Made by a program: the position numbers and the translations under genes
Part shown: in pieces, positions 2,281 to 37,266 of the stretch
Layout of the letters: every line of letters starts with the position of its first letter
How positions within the stretch are numbered: the stretch's first letter is position 1
DNA from: an uncultured Coxiella sp.
GTDB taxonomy: Bacteria > Pseudomonadota > Gammaproteobacteria > Comchoanobacterales > Comchoanobacteraceae
DNA: 42,644 nt
NCBI GenBank assembly: GCA_902538855.1
Contig: CACBGS010000009.1
Coordinates: 1-42,644, forward strand
Direction: 5' to 3'
The notes under the pieces: model-generated
Database searches by the model: none
What the model was told of the DNA's origin: nothing
Seen by the model: the letters and a program-made list of their open reading frames with translations, nothing else

Positions 2281-3366
2281 TTAGTGTCTAGTGTAGCTGT
2301 TAGTGCTTTGCCTGTAAACGTTCCTAGGTCTGTTATTGCTAAATAGCCCGAAATAATTATCGAGTTCGCTAAATAATCGCTCTGAGATTTTGGCACTTAG
2401 TTCGCTTGCATCGAGTTCGCTAAATAATCGCTCTGAGATTTTGGCACTTAGTTCGCTTGCTTTGTCATTATTTTGATTTCGTAGAGGTGACCTTTGTTGC
2501 TGTTGTTTTTTTATGTAATCCTTTTTTGGTAATTGTGCTTTCTTGTTACCATTTAATTGTCTGCTGTACTTTGTTCCTAAAGCTACGCAGCTGTTGTATA
2601 TTGAGGTAATTTTCCTTTTTAAATAATTCCATGTATAGGTTTGACATATAGTGTTTTTTATATCCTCTAGATCTTGTCCTAGTTCGTTTTTGCTAGGCAG
2701 ATTGATCAATCTGCTGGTGGTTTTTAAATACTGTTGTGTTAGTAGTAGGCTTAGTGAGGTTGCTATTCCAGCAGGTGTGCTTTTTACAAAGCTTAGTATT
2801 GTTGTGATTACTAGAGGTAATATGGCGTAACTGTAGCCTGGTATTACAATGTTATCAGAGTTTGTGAATTGATAAAAGTTATCTTTTAATTGCAGTAAGA
2901 GTTTACCTGTGCATAGTTCTCTGAGCGTTTTGCAAATATTTTGGTAGATCTGATGATATGTTTCTTTATCTGGATTGGGTATTTTATTTTGATTTAAATA
3001 GTTTTCGGTGCAGAATATTGATGCCAATCCGAATCCTAAAGCTAGTGAAAATCCTGGTATGCAGATAGGTAGCATCAAGCAATTTATAATTGTCAGTGGT
3101 CCCATTAGCCAAAAGTGTTTAACTAAAGGGGCTTTATTTGTGGGCTCTTTGTTTATACTACGCAACTCTTTTTCATCCAATTTAAATAAACTTTTTTTTA
3201 TCGGGACACCTAACCATTCAAGTGTATTTATTTTATTATTTAAAGAAGACACTCTGAGCCTTGCTGATAATGCTATCTTAGTCAACTCAACAAGCTCTTT
3301 GTGTATACTGGCTTCTATTTTTTTTTGATTAAAGAATGTATTGTATATGTCGAATAATGTACGCAT
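2281..3366 (-). CDS. Orphan membrane protein with C-terminal 17-residue tandem repeat
   Basis: 361 residues, function not recognised. The first 80 residues are charged and probably helical. Two hydrophobic regions follow, at about 86-119 and 173-210, each long enough for a membrane hairpin, so perhaps four membrane segments. Residues 280-300 are rich in K, Q and R. A 17-residue unit (SELSAKISERLFSELDA) then occurs twice at 303-336. The ATG at 3364-3366 has GGA seven bases upstream. It stands alone, with long AT-rich spacers on both sides, in the opposite direction to pepN and fabI. Base composition is more AT-rich than in the housekeeping genes. A secreted or host-interacting membrane protein is possible but unproven. 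Confidence 0.7.
   Translation of the reverse strand: MRTLFDIYNTFFNQKKIEASIHKELVELTKIALSARLRVSSLNNKINTLEWLGVPIKKSLFKLDEKELRSINKEPTNKAPLVKHFWLMGPLTIINCLMLPICIPGFSLALGFGLASIFCTENYLNQNKIPNPDKETYHQIYQNICKTLRELCTGKLLLQLKDNFYQFTNSDNIVIPGYSYAILPLVITTILSFVKSTPAGIATSLSLLLTQQYLKTTSRLINLPSKNELGQDLEDIKNTICQTYTWNYLKRKITSIYNSCVALGTKYSRQLNGNKKAQLPKKDYIKKQQQQRSPLRNQNNDKASELSAKISERLFSELDASELSAKISERLFSELDNYFGLFSNNRPRNVYRQSTNSYTRH
2360..2461 (-). repeat. Two tandem copies of a 51-base unit
   Basis: Copies at 2360-2410 and 2411-2461 differ only at the last base. The unit is a multiple of three, so it adds 17 residues in frame to the C-terminus of the orphan membrane protein. Near identity means either a recent duplication or ongoing copy-number change. 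Confidence 0.95.
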
Positions 3367-12758: not shown

Positions 12759-13484
12759 TTAGCTGTTATAGGCAATGCTGACCCAAGTTGTTTTAGTTGT
12801 TGTTGCAGCGTTACCTGGGAATGGATCTTTACGGAAACGGTTTGATGAAACGCTAAAGGTATAATGTTGCCATTTGTAACCAAAGCTTGCTTGTGAGTTT
12901 TTGCCGTTAAGTACGCTAGTAGATTCTAAGCTGGTTATTTTTGAGTTGTATTTTGAATACAGTACTTTAGCGAAGAAATCGTTGTATGTATATACTACTC
13001 CACCTTCAGTATATTGTAATTTATCGCCGTCGAGTTGCTTTGATATTTTCACATAAGGCATGAAATTTTGAAAATAAAACTCTTGTATTGCATTCACATA
13101 ATTCCATGTCCCGCTGGTGTAGTTAGGGTATGTGGCATTGACATATTGTATATACAGTTTGTGCCAAGATCTGCCGAAATTGGTAGAAATTTGTGGTCTA
13201 AGTTTTATCTCCATAGTTGCTGGACTGGTTGTGGTACCCATGTTGACACTGCTTCCTTGGATAAATATGTTTACATTTTCTCCATACTCAACGTTAAAGC
13301 CTGCTTGTACTGAACCTTGGTTGTTACTCTGTGTTTGACCACGGAACATATAATTGTTGGTGAACTTTAGGAAGGAGTGCAGTTTTAGTTCTGGTATTTC
13401 TAGCATTGCTACAGGGTCGTTGTAGGTTGCAGCGTGTGTAAACTTGCATAAAAGCAGTAATAGTGCTGGTAGTAAATAGTTCAT
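12759..13484 (-). CDS. Putative outer-membrane porin, TorF/Gcw_chp-like
   Basis: About 241 residues with a signal peptide (MNYLLPALLLLLCKFTHA, cleavage likely after HA). The mature part alternates polar and aromatic residues like a beta-barrel. It contains FTNNYMFRGQTQSNNQGSVQAGF, close to the family's S-x-Y-x-F-R-G-x-S-Q-S signature. Later strands end in aromatic residues (WHKLYIQYV, QEFYFQNFMPYVKI). The chosen ATG (13484) is six bases after GGAG; the ATG one codon earlier is equally readable. A 35-base gap separates it from the paralogue upstream, so they form an operon ending at the terminator. Assignment to the family is by pattern only. Substrate unknown. Confidence 0.7.
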   Translation of the reverse strand: MNYLLPALLLLLCKFTHAATYNDPVAMLEIPELKLHSFLKFTNNYMFRGQTQSNNQGSVQAGFNVEYGENVNIFIQGSSVNMGTTTSPATMEIKLRPQISTNFGRSWHKLYIQYVNATYPNYTSGTWNYVNAIQEFYFQNFMPYVKISKQLDGDKLQYTEGGVVYTYNDFFAKVLYSKYNSKITSLESTSVLNGKNSQASFGYKWQHYTFSVSSNRFRKDPFPGNAATTTKTTWVSIAYNS

Positions 13485-13519
13485 CATGTGCTCCAATCAA
13501 GTAGTTATTTCATATTACT

Positions 13520-14275
13520 CTAATCAATCATGTCTGTAAAGTTGAACTTGCTAGTGCTGTTATACGCTACTCTGACTACAGGGTAGGATTTTTTAATATT
13601 ATCGTAGCTTTTAGTATTTACCACACCATAGCTAAGCGTATAGTTCTGGTAGGTGTAGCTAGCTGCAAACGCGTAATATCTACCAGTATCTTTCCAATCG
13701 CCCATGTTGGCAAATAATTTTACTGGGCCATAGTCGTAGGTTATGCCGGTTTCGGTATTATTTCTTTGTATCATAGTTTTAGTACTTGCTGTGTATGTTG
13801 AGGGCTTTATTGTTTTATTGAGCTGATGTGAATAAGTAATATAAGGTGTTAGGTTATAGCCATTGACTTGATAAGTTACAAAGAGTTCGCCAAAAGTTTG
13901 TTCAGCCTGATTGGGATACATATAGCGATTGTAGCCAAGACTTAACAGTTGCCATGAGCGTCTGAGATCGTGGCAAAATTTACTTTCAAAGGTAAGTTCT
14001 GTGAACGCATTTTGGAAATTTGTGGCTGTTGTTCCGCGCATACTGCTGGCAGAAAAACTTGCGTAAAATCTGTTAGCAAAGCTTAGTGTGGTTTTGGCGC
14101 TGACGCTGCTTTTTTTAAGACTCATATCAAGTGAGCGGAACACTTTGTCTGATTCTAGGTGAACATAACTGTCTAATTTAAAATCGCTTACAATGTATGG
14201 ATGGTCGGTGAAGTACTGCGATTTTGCAAATATTGAAGTGTTTAGTAGCGCTAAAACTGCTATCAGTAACCACAT
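13520..14275 (-). CDS. Second putative outer-membrane porin, paralogue of the next gene
   Basis: 251 residues. The start ATGTGG follows AAGGAA and begins a signal peptide (MWLLIAVLALLNTSIFA, cleavage after FAK or FA). Order of features matches the neighbour: a charged N-terminal strand (FKLDSYVHLESDKVFRSLD), repeated amphipathic strands, RRSWQLLSLGYNRYMYPN matching the neighbour's GRSWHKLYIQYVNATYPN, and a C-terminal PVVRVAYNS matching VSIAYNS. The R-G-x-S-Q-S signature is weaker here. Tandem duplication followed by divergence is the simplest reading. A C-terminal tail of about ten residues (KFNFTDMID) runs past the shared end. It is the first gene of the pair's operon. Confidence 0.65.
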   Translation of the reverse strand: MWLLIAVLALLNTSIFAKSQYFTDHPYIVSDFKLDSYVHLESDKVFRSLDMSLKKSSVSAKTTLSFANRFYASFSASSMRGTTATNFQNAFTELTFESKFCHDLRRSWQLLSLGYNRYMYPNQAEQTFGELFVTYQVNGYNLTPYITYSHQLNKTIKPSTYTASTKTMIQRNNTETGITYDYGPVKLFANMGDWKDTGRYYAFAASYTYQNYTLSYGVVNTKSYDNIKKSYPVVRVAYNSTSKFNFTDMID

Positions 14276-14362: not shown

Positions 14363-15229
14363 TTATTTGCTTGGTATTGTGTCTAGTGCTTCTCTTATTT
14401 GTGTAGCACAATTACTATGTTTGCTAATTAGCTGAATAAAATTATTTTGATCGGGATTTAAATATTGTTTATAGCAAATATTTTTAAAATAGTTACTCAG
14501 TGTAAGGAAAATGCCAATGCTGGCGATGAATATTGAAAACTCTGTGCTGAATTTAAGAAATTCAGTTCTGAATAAATTGCTAGCCCAGCCAATCATCATG
14601 TTGCATAGTAGTGTTTTGATAATAATATGTTTGGTGCGTAAGGATTTGAGCTTAGCTTGGCAATCAATATAAATCTTTGTGAGTTTGGTTGTTGTGTTGG
14701 TGTTTGTATGTTGCGTTGTGGCTAGGATAAGTTGCTCTTTAGCTTGTGTGAAAGTATAGTGTCTATCAATTAGATTCCAGCATTCTGCGCATAACTGAAG
14801 GCTGCCACAAATTATAGATAATGGTATACCCTGGTATCTTAAACAGCTGGTGTCGAAATTATTTATCGTGTATCTTGTAAGGCTCATAATACTAATAGTT
14901 ATGACTATTAGGGATAATAATAGGTATGGCCAGTATTGTTTCCATCCTTTACGATTGTAAAAAAAGGTGTATTTATACAGGGCGTTTGTGCCGTTTGAAA
15001 CAATGCCTGCAGTCAGAATGATCGGTAAGATATAATTATTGGCCAGCGCAGTGCCCAAGCATTTTTCAGTTATGCTGCCAGAGAATATTCTACATATTTG
15101 ATTAAATAGGGTTCTTAATGGATCAAATTTACTGTCCATGTAGTCGATGATGTCAGGATAATTGCCTTTGAGCTTAAATACTTTATTGCGACAGAAACTG
15201 GTAGGTTTTGTGCTCAGTGTGTTTTTCAT
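14363..15229 (-). CDS. Orphan multi-pass membrane protein
   Basis: 288 residues, not recognised. The start is ATG 15229, nine bases after GGAGAG. A longer in-frame reading to 15286 lacks a ribosome site. Hydrophobic segments lie at about 57-79, 99-117, 201-220 and 231-249, with a weaker one at 134-152, so four or five membrane spans. A Thr/Asn-rich loop (173-184) lies between the halves. Both ends are charged and probably cytoplasmic or exposed. It lies upstream of the porin pair on the same strand, but 87 bases separate them, so shared transcription is uncertain. Composition is AT-rich like the orphan at 2281-3366. No sequence similarity between the two is evident. Confidence 0.65.
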   Translation of the reverse strand: MKNTLSTKPTSFCRNKVFKLKGNYPDIIDYMDSKFDPLRTLFNQICRIFSGSITEKCLGTALANNYILPIILTAGIVSNGTNALYKYTFFYNRKGWKQYWPYLLLSLIVITISIMSLTRYTINNFDTSCLRYQGIPLSIICGSLQLCAECWNLIDRHYTFTQAKEQLILATTQHTNTNTTTKLTKIYIDCQAKLKSLRTKHIIIKTLLCNMMIGWASNLFRTEFLKFSTEFSIFIASIGIFLTLSNYFKNICYKQYLNPDQNNFIQLISKHSNCATQIREALDTIPSK

Positions 15230-15507
15230 ATTTTGTCTCTCCAGTTGTATAGTTCCAACAAGCAAATCAAGCCGCTGATACTGCACAAAAAAGTTGAAAC
15301 ATTATAACATAAGATTAAGACTATGGATAGTTGTGAGGTTTGATTTGCTCATGATTTTGCATATAAATATGCTATTTTTGTGAAAGCGCTGCTTGTGTGA
15401 ATAATATATTGGCTGGATAAGTGTTGTTTTTCGGTTATTAGGGGCTTATTTGTGGTGTTTGTATGGATAGTATGTTATTATATTAGGCTAATTATTATGG
15501 TTTATTT

Positions 15508-26500: not shown

Positions 26501-27247
26501 TTATGTTTCATATAGTTGTACTGTATAAAAGTAGGGCCATAATTTACCGGTAATAAGCATAGTGTGTGCATCGAGATGTGTGATGCCATTTAGTACTTGG
26601 GCAGACTTGGGTAGTTTTGCTCGTATACTACTAAGATTAATGATGCCTACTACTTCAGCCTTATTTGGCTCTATTTTAGCAATAATATCTTTGAATAGAA
26701 TGTTGGCATATACGTAGCCCCCTTGGTAGCTTAAATCATTCAGTCGCCATTTTTTATATTTTGGATCTTTTAGGCATAATGTTTTTAACAAACTAAAGTC
26801 TTTATCTCTGTATTGTAAACAATGGTTGCCTGAGCTCATAATATAATGTTGGCCGTCTGAAGTTAAGCCCCATCCTTCACCATGAAAGCTATGAGATGTT
26901 TGTGGTTTTAGATTGCTAGTGTTATAAACTAGTGCTTTATTCTCACGCCATGTTAGCTGTATTAGTTTATCGTCTACTAAGGCAATGCCTTCAGCAAATA
27001 GTGTTTTAGGAAGTTCTATGCTGCGCTGATACTCTAATTCTGGCCATGAGTATCGTATTAACTTGCTTTGTGCATACAAACCAATACTTTCGTATAAATA
27101 GGGTGATTTAAATAAGAGGCCTTGAGTAAAGTGTTCTTGTTTGTGGCTGTGCTGTGCAAGTACCTGAAAGGGGATATTCTTAGGGATGCTTGCTTGTGTA
27201 GAAACAACAAGTGTAACTAATAAATAGGCTATAAATGTGCTAGACAT
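26501..27247 (-). CDS. Glutaminyl-peptide cyclotransferase-like protein
   Basis: Enzymes of this family convert N-terminal glutamine to pyroglutamate and fold as a five-bladed propeller. 248 residues with a signal peptide (MSSTFIAYLLVTLVVSTQASI), so it is periplasmic or secreted. Family motifs seen in order are HFTQGLLF, YESIGLY, ELPKTLFAEGIAL, FHGEGWGLTSDG, NDLSYQGGYVYAN and VLNGITH. The start codon overlaps the stop of the PAP2-like gene by eight bases, suggesting translational coupling. Its substrates cannot be inferred from context, though exported proteins are encoded nearby. Confidence 0.85.
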   Translation of the reverse strand: MSSTFIAYLLVTLVVSTQASIPKNIPFQVLAQHSHKQEHFTQGLLFKSPYLYESIGLYAQSKLIRYSWPELEYQRSIELPKTLFAEGIALVDDKLIQLTWRENKALVYNTSNLKPQTSHSFHGEGWGLTSDGQHYIMSSGNHCLQYRDKDFSLLKTLCLKDPKYKKWRLNDLSYQGGYVYANILFKDIIAKIEPNKAEVVGIINLSSIRAKLPKSAQVLNGITHLDAHTMLITGKLWPYFYTVQLYET

Positions 27248-28159: not shown

Positions 28160-28170
28160 ATATGCTCATT

Positions 28171-28244
28171 GTGCCCGTAGCTCAGCTGGATAGAGTACCT
28201 GGCTACGAACCAGGCGGTCGGGAGTTCGAATCTCTCCGGGCACG
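28171..28244 (+). tRNA. tRNA-Arg (anticodon ACG), no encoded CCA
   Basis: 74 bases. The acceptor stem is GTGCCCG with CGGGCAC and a G discriminator, the anticodon stem CCTGG/CCAGG, and the loop CTACGAA with anticodon ACG. The T arm is GGGAG-TTCGAAT-CTCTC with one wobble pair. The A34 would be read as inosine after TadA action, so it serves CGU, CGC and CGA. The 3' CCA is absent (ATA follows), so a CCA-adding enzyme must complete it. The acid phosphatase gene starts 20 bases downstream. Confidence 0.95.
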
Positions 28245-28263
28245 ATATTTTCTATTGCGTATT

Positions 28264-28920
28264 ATGTTGTTGTTGCTTTATATTTTGTTATCGCGATTTT
28301 CTTTGGCTTGCACTCAGGAATCTATGACCGTCGCACAGCGTGCTGAGTATGTAAGTACAGGTGCTTATTATCGAGACGTTGCTGAGGCTGTGAGTCAATT
28401 TGAAGTAAATTTTTTTAAACAACGATTAGCTATTTCTCAGGGTTCTAAAGCGGTTGTTTTTGATGTTGATGAAACGCTTATCTCAAATATTTCTTATTTG
28501 CAATCTAGTCATTATATGCCTACAACAGCAGGGTTTTATCAGTATTTGTCACATAGTAAGGCTGTTGGTCTTAGTCCGGTAGTACAGCTGGCTAAGCAAT
28601 TTATTGCAATGGGATATAGAATATTTATTGTAACAGGCAGGCCGCAAAGGTTTTGCCAACTGACAAAGATGCAATTGCAGCAAATTACTGTGCCGATTAA
28701 TGGTGGGGACTTATATTGTAACAATACTAATTTGTCTACTGTTGCTTATAAAAAGCATATTTTTTCATCTATTAAGCAGCAAGGCTACACAGTGGTTGTG
28801 CATGTGAGTGATCAATGTGCTGAATTTTGGTCAGGACAGTCGTTGTGGCAGTTAAAGCTGCCAAATCCTTTCTATCAGGTTGCGGCTGATGCTAACATGA
28901 TTCCTCAATCGCAAAATTAG
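28264..28920 (+). CDS. HAD-superfamily class B-type acid phosphatase, exported
   Basis: 218 residues. A short hydrophobic leader (1-15) ends LAC, which may be a signal peptide or a weak lipobox. Motif I is VVFDVDETL (D67, D69), motif II IVTGRP (T124), motif III lysine in YKKHIF (163-164), and motif IV is probably VSDQCAEF (D183, E187). The layout resembles lipoprotein e(P4) and acid phosphatases that act outside the cytoplasm. The start is ATG 28264, with no ribosome site, 19 bases after tRNA-Arg; TTG 28255 is also in frame. It probably shares the tRNA transcript, so cutting at the tRNA 3' end would leave a very short leader. The last 29 bases overlap convergent rmuC. Confidence 0.8.
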   Translation: MLLLLYILLSRFSLACTQESMTVAQRAEYVSTGAYYRDVAEAVSQFEVNFFKQRLAISQGSKAVVFDVDETLISNISYLQSSHYMPTTAGFYQYLSHSKAVGLSPVVQLAKQFIAMGYRIFIVTGRPQRFCQLTKMQLQQITVPINGGDLYCNNTNLSTVAYKKHIFSSIKQQGYTVVVHVSDQCAEFWSGQSLWQLKLPNPFYQVAADANMIPQSQN

Positions 28921-34362: not shown

Positions 34363-34737
34363 ATGTCAAAAGATAGTAATGATACTAATGAAATTCATCA
34401 ACGTGCGCAGATGTTGGTCATGGCAAAACTGGTGGATGCGAAAAATCAAGTTAGAGATTTACAAGCATGGATGCGGATACAGTTTGTTGTAGTTATTCTA
34501 GCTATCTGTGTGACTATAGGTATTTTGGCTTTATATGCAATTGGTGCGCCTATACCATATATCACTTTAACTAGCATATTTATAACACTGGCTTTATGGG
34601 TTAAATATTGTATGCTTAGCTATCATTGTGCCTATCAATGCAAGCAGCTTGAGCGTGCACAACATGCTATGCACACTTTGGCTAATCATCATTATACGCA
34701 AGAGCAGCATGCGTCTATAGTGCGTAAACGAGCTTAG
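34363..34737 (+). CDS. Small two-span membrane protein, unknown
   Basis: 124 residues. A charged helical N-terminal part (1-38) precedes two hydrophobic segments, about 40-61 and 66-88, and a His- and Gln-rich C-terminal part. AGGTGG lies eight bases before ATG 34363. The region upstream (34324-34351) is an alternating TA run containing TATAAT twice, so a promoter is likely but its exact boxes cannot be chosen. The stop overlaps that of the convergent 809-residue gene within TTAG (34734-34737). No family was recognised. Confidence 0.65.
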   Translation: MSKDSNDTNEIHQRAQMLVMAKLVDAKNQVRDLQAWMRIQFVVVILAICVTIGILALYAIGAPIPYITLTSIFITLALWVKYCMLSYHCAYQCKQLERAQHAMHTLANHHYTQEQHASIVRKRA

Positions 34738-37163
34738 ATAGCTGGTCTTTGCTCTTGTCTATTTTCAGTGCCACTGCATACGAAGATGCTTTCATCGTTT
34801 AGACTGAACTTTTCTCTTAGAATCTTCATGCCTTCTTCTTTAGCTGCAGTTACAAATGCATTGTTTTTACTATCAATTGGTATTTTGCTATCACGGTTGA
34901 CTGTGTGGGTTGCAAGATACCAACGCATCGCTTTTCTACCAGCTTCCTCTGCCTCGTTATCTCCTTTCCATGAGGTGCTTACTTTTTGTATCTTATTGTA
35001 TACATCGCAATGTAGGCTAATGTTTTCTTGTATTTCTACCGTGTAGTTATTGCTATCATCTACAGCTTTCTTAGTGAGTGTAGCCGTTTCTTTTGCTGCA
35101 AGTATATCATCTGATGTTATATTTATATCGAAGGAATTTAGGTGTCTCTTTTGATTCTCGCATGTCTTTTGCATTAGTCTATCTATGTGATCGCTTATGT
35201 GATCGCTGGTAATAGTATTGTTATCATCTAAGTCTGTTATTATAGCATCGTAACACATTGGCGTGCAGTAACCGTTTTTGTAGCTAAATTTATCAAAAAT
35301 AGCTAATAGCTCAACTTCTACTGTATTGTCATTATTGTTCTCATTTCTTGTAACAATTGGTTGTTGCATTGTTACTCTAGAGCCGCCACCGCTGTTTGTG
35401 TTTGAGCCGTTGTTGTTAGAATTTGTGCCTGTATTGCTTGTGCTTGAGCTACCGATACTACCATAATTATTGTGATGGGAAGCTCGTGTGCCAGTATTAT
35501 CTGCTGCTGTGGCACTGTCTGCGTAAGAATTAGTATATTCTCTATGCGTATCGCCTGTATCACCACCGATCCTGCCACTTTGATTGGTCGTGTCTTCTGC
35601 AGTCTCAAATGCTACTCTATCATGGCTGTTTGCTGTATCTGTCTGATGTGGATTTTGTATTATCTTAGAGTTTCTTATTAAATATTCGGCAAGCTGTTGT
35701 AGAATTGCTGGCTCAACCCAAAATGTATTGCTATCTTTTTTACTTAAAGTCTCATTTGCTATAGTTAATGTTTCAACACTAGCTTTTTTTGAGAGGGTGC
35801 TACTTAATCTTTCTAGTGGTCTGGGGAGTTGTCTAGGTAATGTTAGCTCTATGCTTTTGCTCAAGTTTTCTTGCATTAGTTTTTCTAGTTTAAATCCGCC
35901 AAAAGCGTAATTAAGTGTACTAGAATCCCTATGTTGTTCTGTTGTTGCAATAGCAGCCTTATTATTCCATAGTAGCAGACTGGCTTGCATACTAATTCTT
36001 TTGTCTGTTTCAGCAAATAATGTTGTTGCTATTTTCGATAAAATCATTGGTAATACTCTTGGTGCAAGTATGATTTTGCTATGTGGTTGTTCTGTGGCTT
36101 GGGTAAGTAACTCAATAATTTTTTGTACTGGGCTACTGCATATTTTTTCCGTAATATAATAGGTGATTTCTTGATTTTGACTAATATATTGGGCTGTTGT
36201 GTTTTTAGGGCTTGGTGTCATAGTGTTGTACTCTGCAGTTTTTGTAGTTGTTAATGCTGATGTGGTTTTTTCAGGTTCAATAGAGCTGTATGTTTTGTAC
36301 TCGTTGAGAAAATAAATGACTAGATGTTGTATAATTCTTGGATTTATCCAAAGACTGTTATTGTTATTTTTACTAGAGTATTTCTGCTTATTGCTGTTTC
36401 CTACACTTGTTTTTACTAAGCTAGCGCTGTTTTTTTCTGTATTGTTTTGTATAACTGTGTTAATTTTTTCAGTCATTTTATGACAAAACTGTATTTGAAT
36501 GCTTTGAGTTGTGTTTTGCTTGAGTAATCGCTCTAGCTTATATTTTAGTTTTGGTGTTTGAAGAGAGAGATTATTGCTTATACGCTCAATTATTTGTGGT
36601 GTGCTGCTATTGTAATTGCTAGTACTTGCTTGTAGTGCATTATTAGCTTCACTATCTTCTAATACAGATAAGTTGCTAGGTAATTTAGCTAAAATCATAG
36701 GTAGCACTTTTGGTGCAAATATGATTTTACTATTTGGTTTTGTGCTGGCTTGTGCAAGTAAATCAATAATATGCCCAATTGAGTTTTGGCATATTTCTTC
36801 ACTGATGAAGTATACAGGTGCTTGTGTTGTGGATACAGAATTTTGTGCTGCTACACTTGTTTGGTTATTATGTAGTGGGCTATAAAAATTTGCTTTTTTA
36901 GAAATTTTTCTTGCCATGTTCCAATGTGTAAAAGGTCTGTATGCTGTTGTTGTGTTCCCTTGGTGTAGCTGTATGCTTGAAGGTATAGCAATATTTTCGA
37001 TATGCTTACTAATGCCACTCTGTACTACCTGATTTTTTTTGTTTTTGTTGGTAAATAAATTACGTATCCAAGTAAACTTTTGAAAATGTTTTTTCTGTAG
37101 TTGTATTAATCTGCTGCTAATGCTTACTAACAAAAGCAAATAAATTATATTTCTCATAATCAT
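34734..37163 (-). CDS. Large orphan protein with a duplicated 170-residue module
   Basis: 809 residues, no family recognised. A hydrophobic N-terminus (5-20), signal or anchor, is followed by a basic stretch. Two copies of one module follow, at about 116-290 and 332-500. Matching landmarks: EEICQNSIGHIIDLLAQA and EKICSSPVQKIIELLTQA; KIIFAPKVLPMILAK and KIILAPRVLPMILSK; LERLLKQNTTQSIQI and LEKLMQENLSKSIEL; SLWINPRIIQHLVIYF and TFWVEPAILQQLAEYL. Residues 501-612 are Asn/Ser/Gly/Thr-rich and disordered-looking. The C-terminal 190 residues hold five cysteines (633, 637, 668, 719, 796) and no known motif. Codons ATG-ATT-ATG start it, without a clear ribosome site. A surface or secreted host-interaction protein is possible, but not shown. 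Confidence 0.7.
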   Translation of the reverse strand: MIMRNIIYLLLLVSISSRLIQLQKKHFQKFTWIRNLFTNKNKKNQVVQSGISKHIENIAIPSSIQLHQGNTTTAYRPFTHWNMARKISKKANFYSPLHNNQTSVAAQNSVSTTQAPVYFISEEICQNSIGHIIDLLAQASTKPNSKIIFAPKVLPMILAKLPSNLSVLEDSEANNALQASTSNYNSSTPQIIERISNNLSLQTPKLKYKLERLLKQNTTQSIQIQFCHKMTEKINTVIQNNTEKNSASLVKTSVGNSNKQKYSSKNNNNSLWINPRIIQHLVIYFLNEYKTYSSIEPEKTTSALTTTKTAEYNTMTPSPKNTTAQYISQNQEITYYITEKICSSPVQKIIELLTQATEQPHSKIILAPRVLPMILSKIATTLFAETDKRISMQASLLLWNNKAAIATTEQHRDSSTLNYAFGGFKLEKLMQENLSKSIELTLPRQLPRPLERLSSTLSKKASVETLTIANETLSKKDSNTFWVEPAILQQLAEYLIRNSKIIQNPHQTDTANSHDRVAFETAEDTTNQSGRIGGDTGDTHREYTNSYADSATAADNTGTRASHHNNYGSIGSSSTSNTGTNSNNNGSNTNSGGGSRVTMQQPIVTRNENNNDNTVEVELLAIFDKFSYKNGYCTPMCYDAIITDLDDNNTITSDHISDHIDRLMQKTCENQKRHLNSFDINITSDDILAAKETATLTKKAVDDSNNYTVEIQENISLHCDVYNKIQKVSTSWKGDNEAEEAGRKAMRWYLATHTVNRDSKIPIDSKNNAFVTAAKEEGMKILREKFSLNDESIFVCSGTENRQEQRPAI

Positions 37164-37266
37164 AATTGTTGTTTTTAAGTCTTTTATTTTATCATATTTT
37201 TACTAATAAAGTCAATATTATATGCTTTTATTATGTGGCTTGTTGTGAGTCTTTTCTGTAAAGTGC

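What the first reader, a model, noticed from the sequence alone, without database searches (positions are those of the whole stretch)
34734..37163. 809-residue protein built from a duplicated, unrecognised module
Two copies of a 170-residue unit align along their whole length, with conserved I-C, A-P-x-V-L-P-M-I-L and W-x-x-P-x-I-x-Q motifs. Conservation at the same spacing despite divergence elsewhere implies selection on a real fold. An exported-looking N-terminus, a long Asn/Ser/Gly linker and a separate C-terminal domain complete a modular plan I cannot match to a known family.
Basis: partly seen in the sequence, partly recalled or inferred. Interest (0 to 1): 0.7.

Follow-up and report, generated by a model that had tools for sequence, protein, structure and literature searches.

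The report
Orphan exported-looking protein with duplicated module
A small, probably host-dependent marine bacterium carries an 809-residue protein made of two ancient copies of a module seen nowhere else that was searched, a flexible linker and a tail domain shared with one other protein in the genome; the duplication is real, but the protein's job is unknown and such lineage-only proteins are common in bacteria of this lifestyle.

Summary
An 809-codon ORF runs 37163→34734 on the minus strand. Its two ~175-residue units are truly homologous: 30% identity, BLASTP E=2e-26, score 237 against 42±7 for shuffles. All three quoted motifs are invariant. No family was found in Pfam, NCBIfam, PHROGs, PADLOC or the PDB. 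No homologue was found in 13 family members, ~770 sampled class and phylum genomes, GTDB r220 by seed scan, IMG/VR, phages or plasmids. The C-terminal domain has one paralogue, a 328-aa protein on contig C7 that lacks the modules and any hydrophobic N-terminus.

The genome belongs to a one-family gammaproteobacterial order that fits UBA7916/Comchoanobacterales, the choanoflagellate associates. Thirteen of 14 family genomes carry Dot/Icm genes. This 54%-complete assembly shows none, but it holds two ATP/ADP translocases.

Best reading: a lineage-restricted, Sec-targeted envelope or host-interface protein with tandem binding modules held out on disordered linkers. Export and binding are both inferred. 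The main rival is a Dot/Icm effector. AlphaFold2 with two rows gives a partial α/β core (pTM 0.53) without a fold match. An ElbB-like elbow and a YkuD-like stretch were tested and fell to background. It is a new orphan protein family of an ordinary kind.

The parts
34734..37163 (-). 809-aa ORF (P0001), whole gene including stop
   Evidence: chance open frame ~1e-26; GC3 0.279, like its neighbours at 0.24-0.35
37186..37215 (-). possible sigma-70 promoter TTGACT-18-TAAAAT with TG before the second hexamer, 22 nt before the ATG
   Evidence: best-scoring site in the region, but the number of sites there is no more than chance gives
37089..37163 (-). residues 1-25: signal-peptide- or anchor-like N-terminus (MIMRNIIYLLLLVSISSRLIQLQKK)
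   Evidence: maximum 11-residue hydropathy 2.73, in the range of evident exported proteins of this genome; no cleavage predictor available
36819..37088 (-). residues 26-115: basic (net +10) Asn/Thr/Ser-rich spacer
36294..36836 (-). module copy 1, residues 110-290
35664..36185 (-). module copy 2, residues 327-500
   Evidence: AlphaFold2 core E15-18 H27-39 E44-47 H51-63 ... H98-114 E118-122 ... H166-179 in numbering of residues 320-510
35334..35618 (-). residues 516-610: Asn/Thr/Ser/Gly-rich linker, probably disordered
34737..35333 (-). residues 611-809: C-terminal domain; residues 703-783 are the part clearly shared with the 328-aa paralogue P0002 (G000:C7:33996-34979)

Best explanation
The gene encodes a lineage-restricted, probably Sec-targeted protein of an obligately host-associated gammaproteobacterium, one that fits order UBA7916 / Ca. 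Comchoanobacterales. Shown: two homologous ~175-residue modules in tandem, spaced by a short Thr-rich linker; a 95-residue Asn/Thr/Ser/Gly linker; and a C-terminal domain that also occurs in a second, module-free protein. Inferred: the hydrophobic N-terminus takes the protein to or across the inner membrane; the modules are small alpha/beta domains that act as tandem binding units (not enzymes: no conserved set of catalytic residues stands out in the two copies); the disordered linkers hold them away from the envelope; and the protein works at the boundary with the eukaryotic host.
For: Real duplication and protein-level conservation. The hydrophobic N-terminus is comparable with the signal sequences of other exported proteins of the window. 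The Asn/Ser/Thr/Gln content is the highest of 68 ORFs surveyed (35% against 22 +/- 5), the style of exported or effector proteins. The gene is absent from all relatives while the trxB beside it is kept in 10 of the 13 (60-65% identity where full length), as expected for fast-turnover interface genes. Host dependence: two ATP/ADP translocases in the genome, Dot/Icm markers in 13/14 family genomes, and the published description of this order as host-dependent (PMC9418006).
Against: No experiment and no signal-peptide predictor. No clear Ala-X-Ala cleavage site. The paralogue P0002 shares the C-terminal domain but has no hydrophobic N-terminus, which sits badly with a purely Sec-exported family. 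The binding role rests on architecture alone.
Confidence: 0.42

Rival explanations
1. It is a Dot/Icm (type IVB) translocated effector. The C-terminal domain carries the transport signal, the hydrophobic N-terminus is a membrane anchor used inside the host, and the modules bind or alter host factors.
For: 13/14 family genomes have DotI and DotC. The order is described as rich in host-interaction proteins and expressing its pT4SSi (PMC9418006). A domain shared at different positions between two otherwise unrelated orphans, one without a signal sequence, is typical of shuffled effectors (from memory of Legionella work, not tested).
Against: No Dot/Icm gene was found in the held 54% of this genome: DotI, DotC and DotL were all negative. 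They often cluster, so one missing contig could explain this. The last 30 residues show no obvious E-block. A Sec-like N-terminus is unusual for Dot/Icm substrates.
Confidence: 0.3
2. It is an envelope protein with a housekeeping or structural role (periplasmic, inner-membrane anchored), not directed at a host.
For: Signal/anchor-like N-terminus. The paralogue P0002 lies directly downstream of an L,D-transpeptidase (YkuD), a peptidoglycan enzyme.
Against: Absent from every relative, which is unusual for a structural envelope gene. P0002 itself has no signal.
Confidence: 0.18
3. The gene is a drifting orphan without present function.
For: No homologue; low-complexity regions; single genome.
Against: The 809-codon frame is intact. 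The two copies keep long invariant motifs after third codon positions have largely decayed (44% identical), and GC3 matches resident genes.
Confidence: 0.06

Closest known systems
P0002, 328-aa protein of the same genome (G000:C7:33996-34979)
   Same: C-terminal domain, 35-37% identity over ~80-90 residues (E 7.5e-10 to 1.9e-11), including N-[IN]-[ST]-L-x-C, K-V-x-x-x-W and R-W-Y-x-A-T-H
   Different: No tandem modules, no hydrophobic N-terminus, different N-terminal half
Lineage-specific Dot/Icm effectors of Legionella/Coxiella (described from memory)
   Same: Orphan, modular, Asn/Lys-rich, from a lineage carrying Dot/Icm
   Different: No known effector domain; secretion untested; Sec-like N-terminus; Dot/Icm not found in the held part of this genome
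ElbB / DJ-1-PfpI family (NF008747, PRK11780.1)
   Same: Local helix-strand-elbow-helix resemblance over ~48 residues: 'KIILAPRVLPMIL' against 'GAICIAPAVLSKAL'
   Different: The nucleophile Cys is an Ile in the module, the VPGGFG motif is absent, and the profile score of 26 is barely above an unrelated protein (24.8)

Membership tests
Dot/Icm (type IVB) effector | Genome encodes a Dot/Icm apparatus | tested here: inconclusive
   13/14 family genomes have DotI and DotC; the window's own 54%-complete assembly shows no DotI, DotC or DotL
Dot/Icm (type IVB) effector | Translocation dependent on the apparatus / C-terminal signal | not testable with these tools
   No translocation assay; the C-terminus ...SGTENRQEQRPAI shows no obvious E-block by eye
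Sec-exported envelope protein | N-terminal signal peptide or signal anchor | tested here: inconclusive
   Basic n-region and 11-residue hydrophobic core, KD 2.73, as in evident exported proteins of the window; no dedicated predictor, weak cleavage site
Any Pfam / NCBIfam / PHROG / PADLOC family | Match above the curated cut-off | tested here: not met
   No match near a cut-off for the whole protein, the module or the C-terminal domain
Any solved fold (PDB) or viral predicted fold | Sequence or fold match | tested here: not met
   Sequence. Foldseek of a mean-pLDDT-52 model: no E<=0.001. Weak test because the model is weak
ElbB / DJ-1-PfpI | Conserved nucleophile Cys and glycine-rich motif of the fold | tested here: not met
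   Cys replaced by Ile, no VPGGFG; score at the edge of background
YkuD L,D-transpeptidase (C-terminal domain) | HxGT...SxGCxR catalytic motif | tested here: not met
   Pairwise score 63 against 31 +/- 5, but P0002 aligns in another register and does not exceed shuffles; catalytic motif absent; not among the 12 best profile scores

The most novel reading that the evidence does not exclude
The ~175-residue module and the ~190-residue C-terminal domain are two new domain families, found so far only in one genus of an uncultured order of protist-associated bacteria. They would form the visible part of a home-grown toolkit by which these bacteria hold on to or manipulate a single-celled eukaryotic host.
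Probability: 0.3. Interest if true: 0.5.

Novelty: new member of a known kind. Interest (0 to 1): 0.3.

Why it matters
If the protein is exported, it is a candidate for how a genome-reduced, energy-parasitic relative of Coxiella and Legionella deals with its protist host. It would also offer two uncharacterised domain families for structure work. As it stands it is one orphan among many in such genomes, and its value depends on finding orthologues.

Tried and rejected
(1) Known families: Pfam, NCBIfam, PHROGs, PADLOC and PDB all gave only chance-level scores. (2) Homologues: 54 relatives, 369 class genomes with the module profile and with the C-terminal profile, 398 phylum genomes, GTDB r220 contigs, IMG/VR, plasmids and phages. 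None was found beyond G000; the weak hits opened were rpoS and elbB. (3) Descent from ElbB/DJ-1: rejected. (4) Descent of the C-terminal domain from YkuD: rejected. (5) Sub-repeats inside the module: the best off-diagonal score was reached by 15 of 300 shuffles, so not claimed. (6) Fold of the C-terminal domain: single-sequence model, pLDDT 37, discarded. (7) Shared neighbourhood in relatives: trxB has other neighbours (ftsK, serS, dapA and others) in nine relatives, and no counterpart of the gene.

Full report
What is there. On the minus strand, 37163 to 34734, there is an intact 809-codon ORF. The other frames are full of stops, and a chance frame of this length has probability near 1e-26. 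Its GC3 (0.279) equals that of neighbouring housekeeping genes, so nothing suggests recent arrival; its low GC1 follows from its Asn/Lys/Ile-rich composition. A promoter-like TTGACT-18-TAAAAT lies 22 nt upstream, but such matches are not enriched in the region.

The duplication. Residues 110-290 and 327-500 are homologous (30% identity over 182 columns, E=2e-26, score 237 against 42 +/- 7 in 1000 shuffles). Identity by codon position is 56/60/44%: synonymous positions have decayed further than the protein, so the duplication is old and the protein was conserved. I looked for a smaller repeat inside the module and found nothing beyond shuffles.

The rest of the protein. Residues 1-25 are signal- or anchor-like: basic start, 11-residue hydrophobic run, weak Ser-based cleavage site. 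Two segments, 26-115 and 516-610, are low-complexity spacers. The C-terminal domain is not unique: a 328-aa protein on contig C7 shares it (E 7.5e-10; 2e-11), without modules and without a hydrophobic N-terminus. It lies between an L,D-transpeptidase and a GHMP kinase next to an HMG-CoA-reductase-like gene (kinase and reductase named from sequence by eye). The module and the C-terminal domain are not related to each other.

Where it lives. The genome has 790 kb in 21 contigs and is 54% complete. Its CTP synthase is gammaproteobacterial. The family has 14 held genomes of 0.7-1.4 Mb, one a single contig of 1,007,335 bp and one a genome in two contigs. This matches Comchoano-1 (circular, 1.01 Mb, 39% GC) and Comchoano-2 (two contigs, 1.07 Mb) of order UBA7916, obligate associates of choanoflagellates with a Coxiella-like type IV secretion system (PMC9418006). 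Markers agree: DotI and DotC are in 13 of 14 family genomes, all but this incomplete one. DotL is also not found here. Two ATP/ADP translocases are in this genome.

Distribution. Nothing homologous was found in 13 family members, in 369 class genomes, in 398 phylum genomes, in GTDB r220 by seed scan, in IMG/VR, in plasmids or in phages. The neighbouring trxB is kept in 10 of the 13 relatives (one match partial) but in other surroundings. The nearest held relatives are only ~60-65% identical even in TrxB, so absence does not show that the gene is young; a fast-evolving gene would be unrecognisable at that distance.

Structure. AlphaFold2 on module 2 with module 1 as the only other row gave mean pLDDT 52, pTM 0.53, with better blocks (68-82) around a strand-helix-strand-helix unit carrying A-P-x-V-L-P-M-I-L, and around a later helix-strand. 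Foldseek found no match in PDB or BFVD. The C-terminal model is meaningless.

Leads tested and dropped. The module gave weak, repeated pointers to ElbB, a DJ-1-like protein. The profile score of 26 beats column shuffles (maximum 17), but an unrelated protein scores 24.8 among ~530 real ORFs. The ElbB used was itself picked by the search, the nucleophile Cys is Ile and the glycine motif is missing. A C-terminal resemblance to the YkuD protein next to P0002 is in different registers for the two paralogues and lacks the catalytic motif. Neither is claimed.

How it most likely works. I commit, at about 0.42, to a Sec-targeted envelope or secreted protein that presents two related binding modules at the host boundary. 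A Dot/Icm effector is second at about 0.30; the signal-less paralogue and the lineage's secretion system speak for it, the N-terminus against. An envelope protein without host role is third. Shown: duplication, protein-level conservation, shared C-terminal domain, lineage restriction, host-dependent lineage. Inferred: export, binding, target.

Verdict. But orphan modular proteins are expected in this lifestyle, and nothing here shows a new kind of system. Interest 0.3.

Noticed in passing
26501-27247 (-): Glutaminyl-peptide cyclotransferase (Glu_cyclase_2, E 1e-62) with a signal peptide, in a strongly reduced, probably host-dependent genome.
   Followed up: partly
12759-14275 (-): Two adjacent paralogous exported proteins of the Gcw_chp (PF09694) beta-barrel-like family, the second below the curated cut-off; followed by an orphan membrane protein at 14363-15286.
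   Followed up: partly
2281-3366 (-): 361-aa Asn-rich orphan with central hydrophobic hairpin and a duplicated 'DASELSAKISERLFSEL' near the C-terminus; no family match. A candidate of the same host-interface class.
   Followed up: no
L004:3759-5498 (+): 579-aa orphan with a central transmembrane hairpin upstream of pckA on contig C7, no NCBIfam match. Looks like another membrane-targeted effector candidate.
   Followed up: no
L004:7997-8983 (+): P0002, the paralogue of the C-terminal domain, begins with a P-S-A-P-P stretch (late-domain-like) and sits next to an L,D-transpeptidase and mevalonate-pathway-like genes.
   Followed up: partly
28162-28920 (+): The longest ORF of the acid-phosphatase-like gene starts inside tRNA-Arg (28170-28245); the true start must lie downstream.
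   Followed up: no
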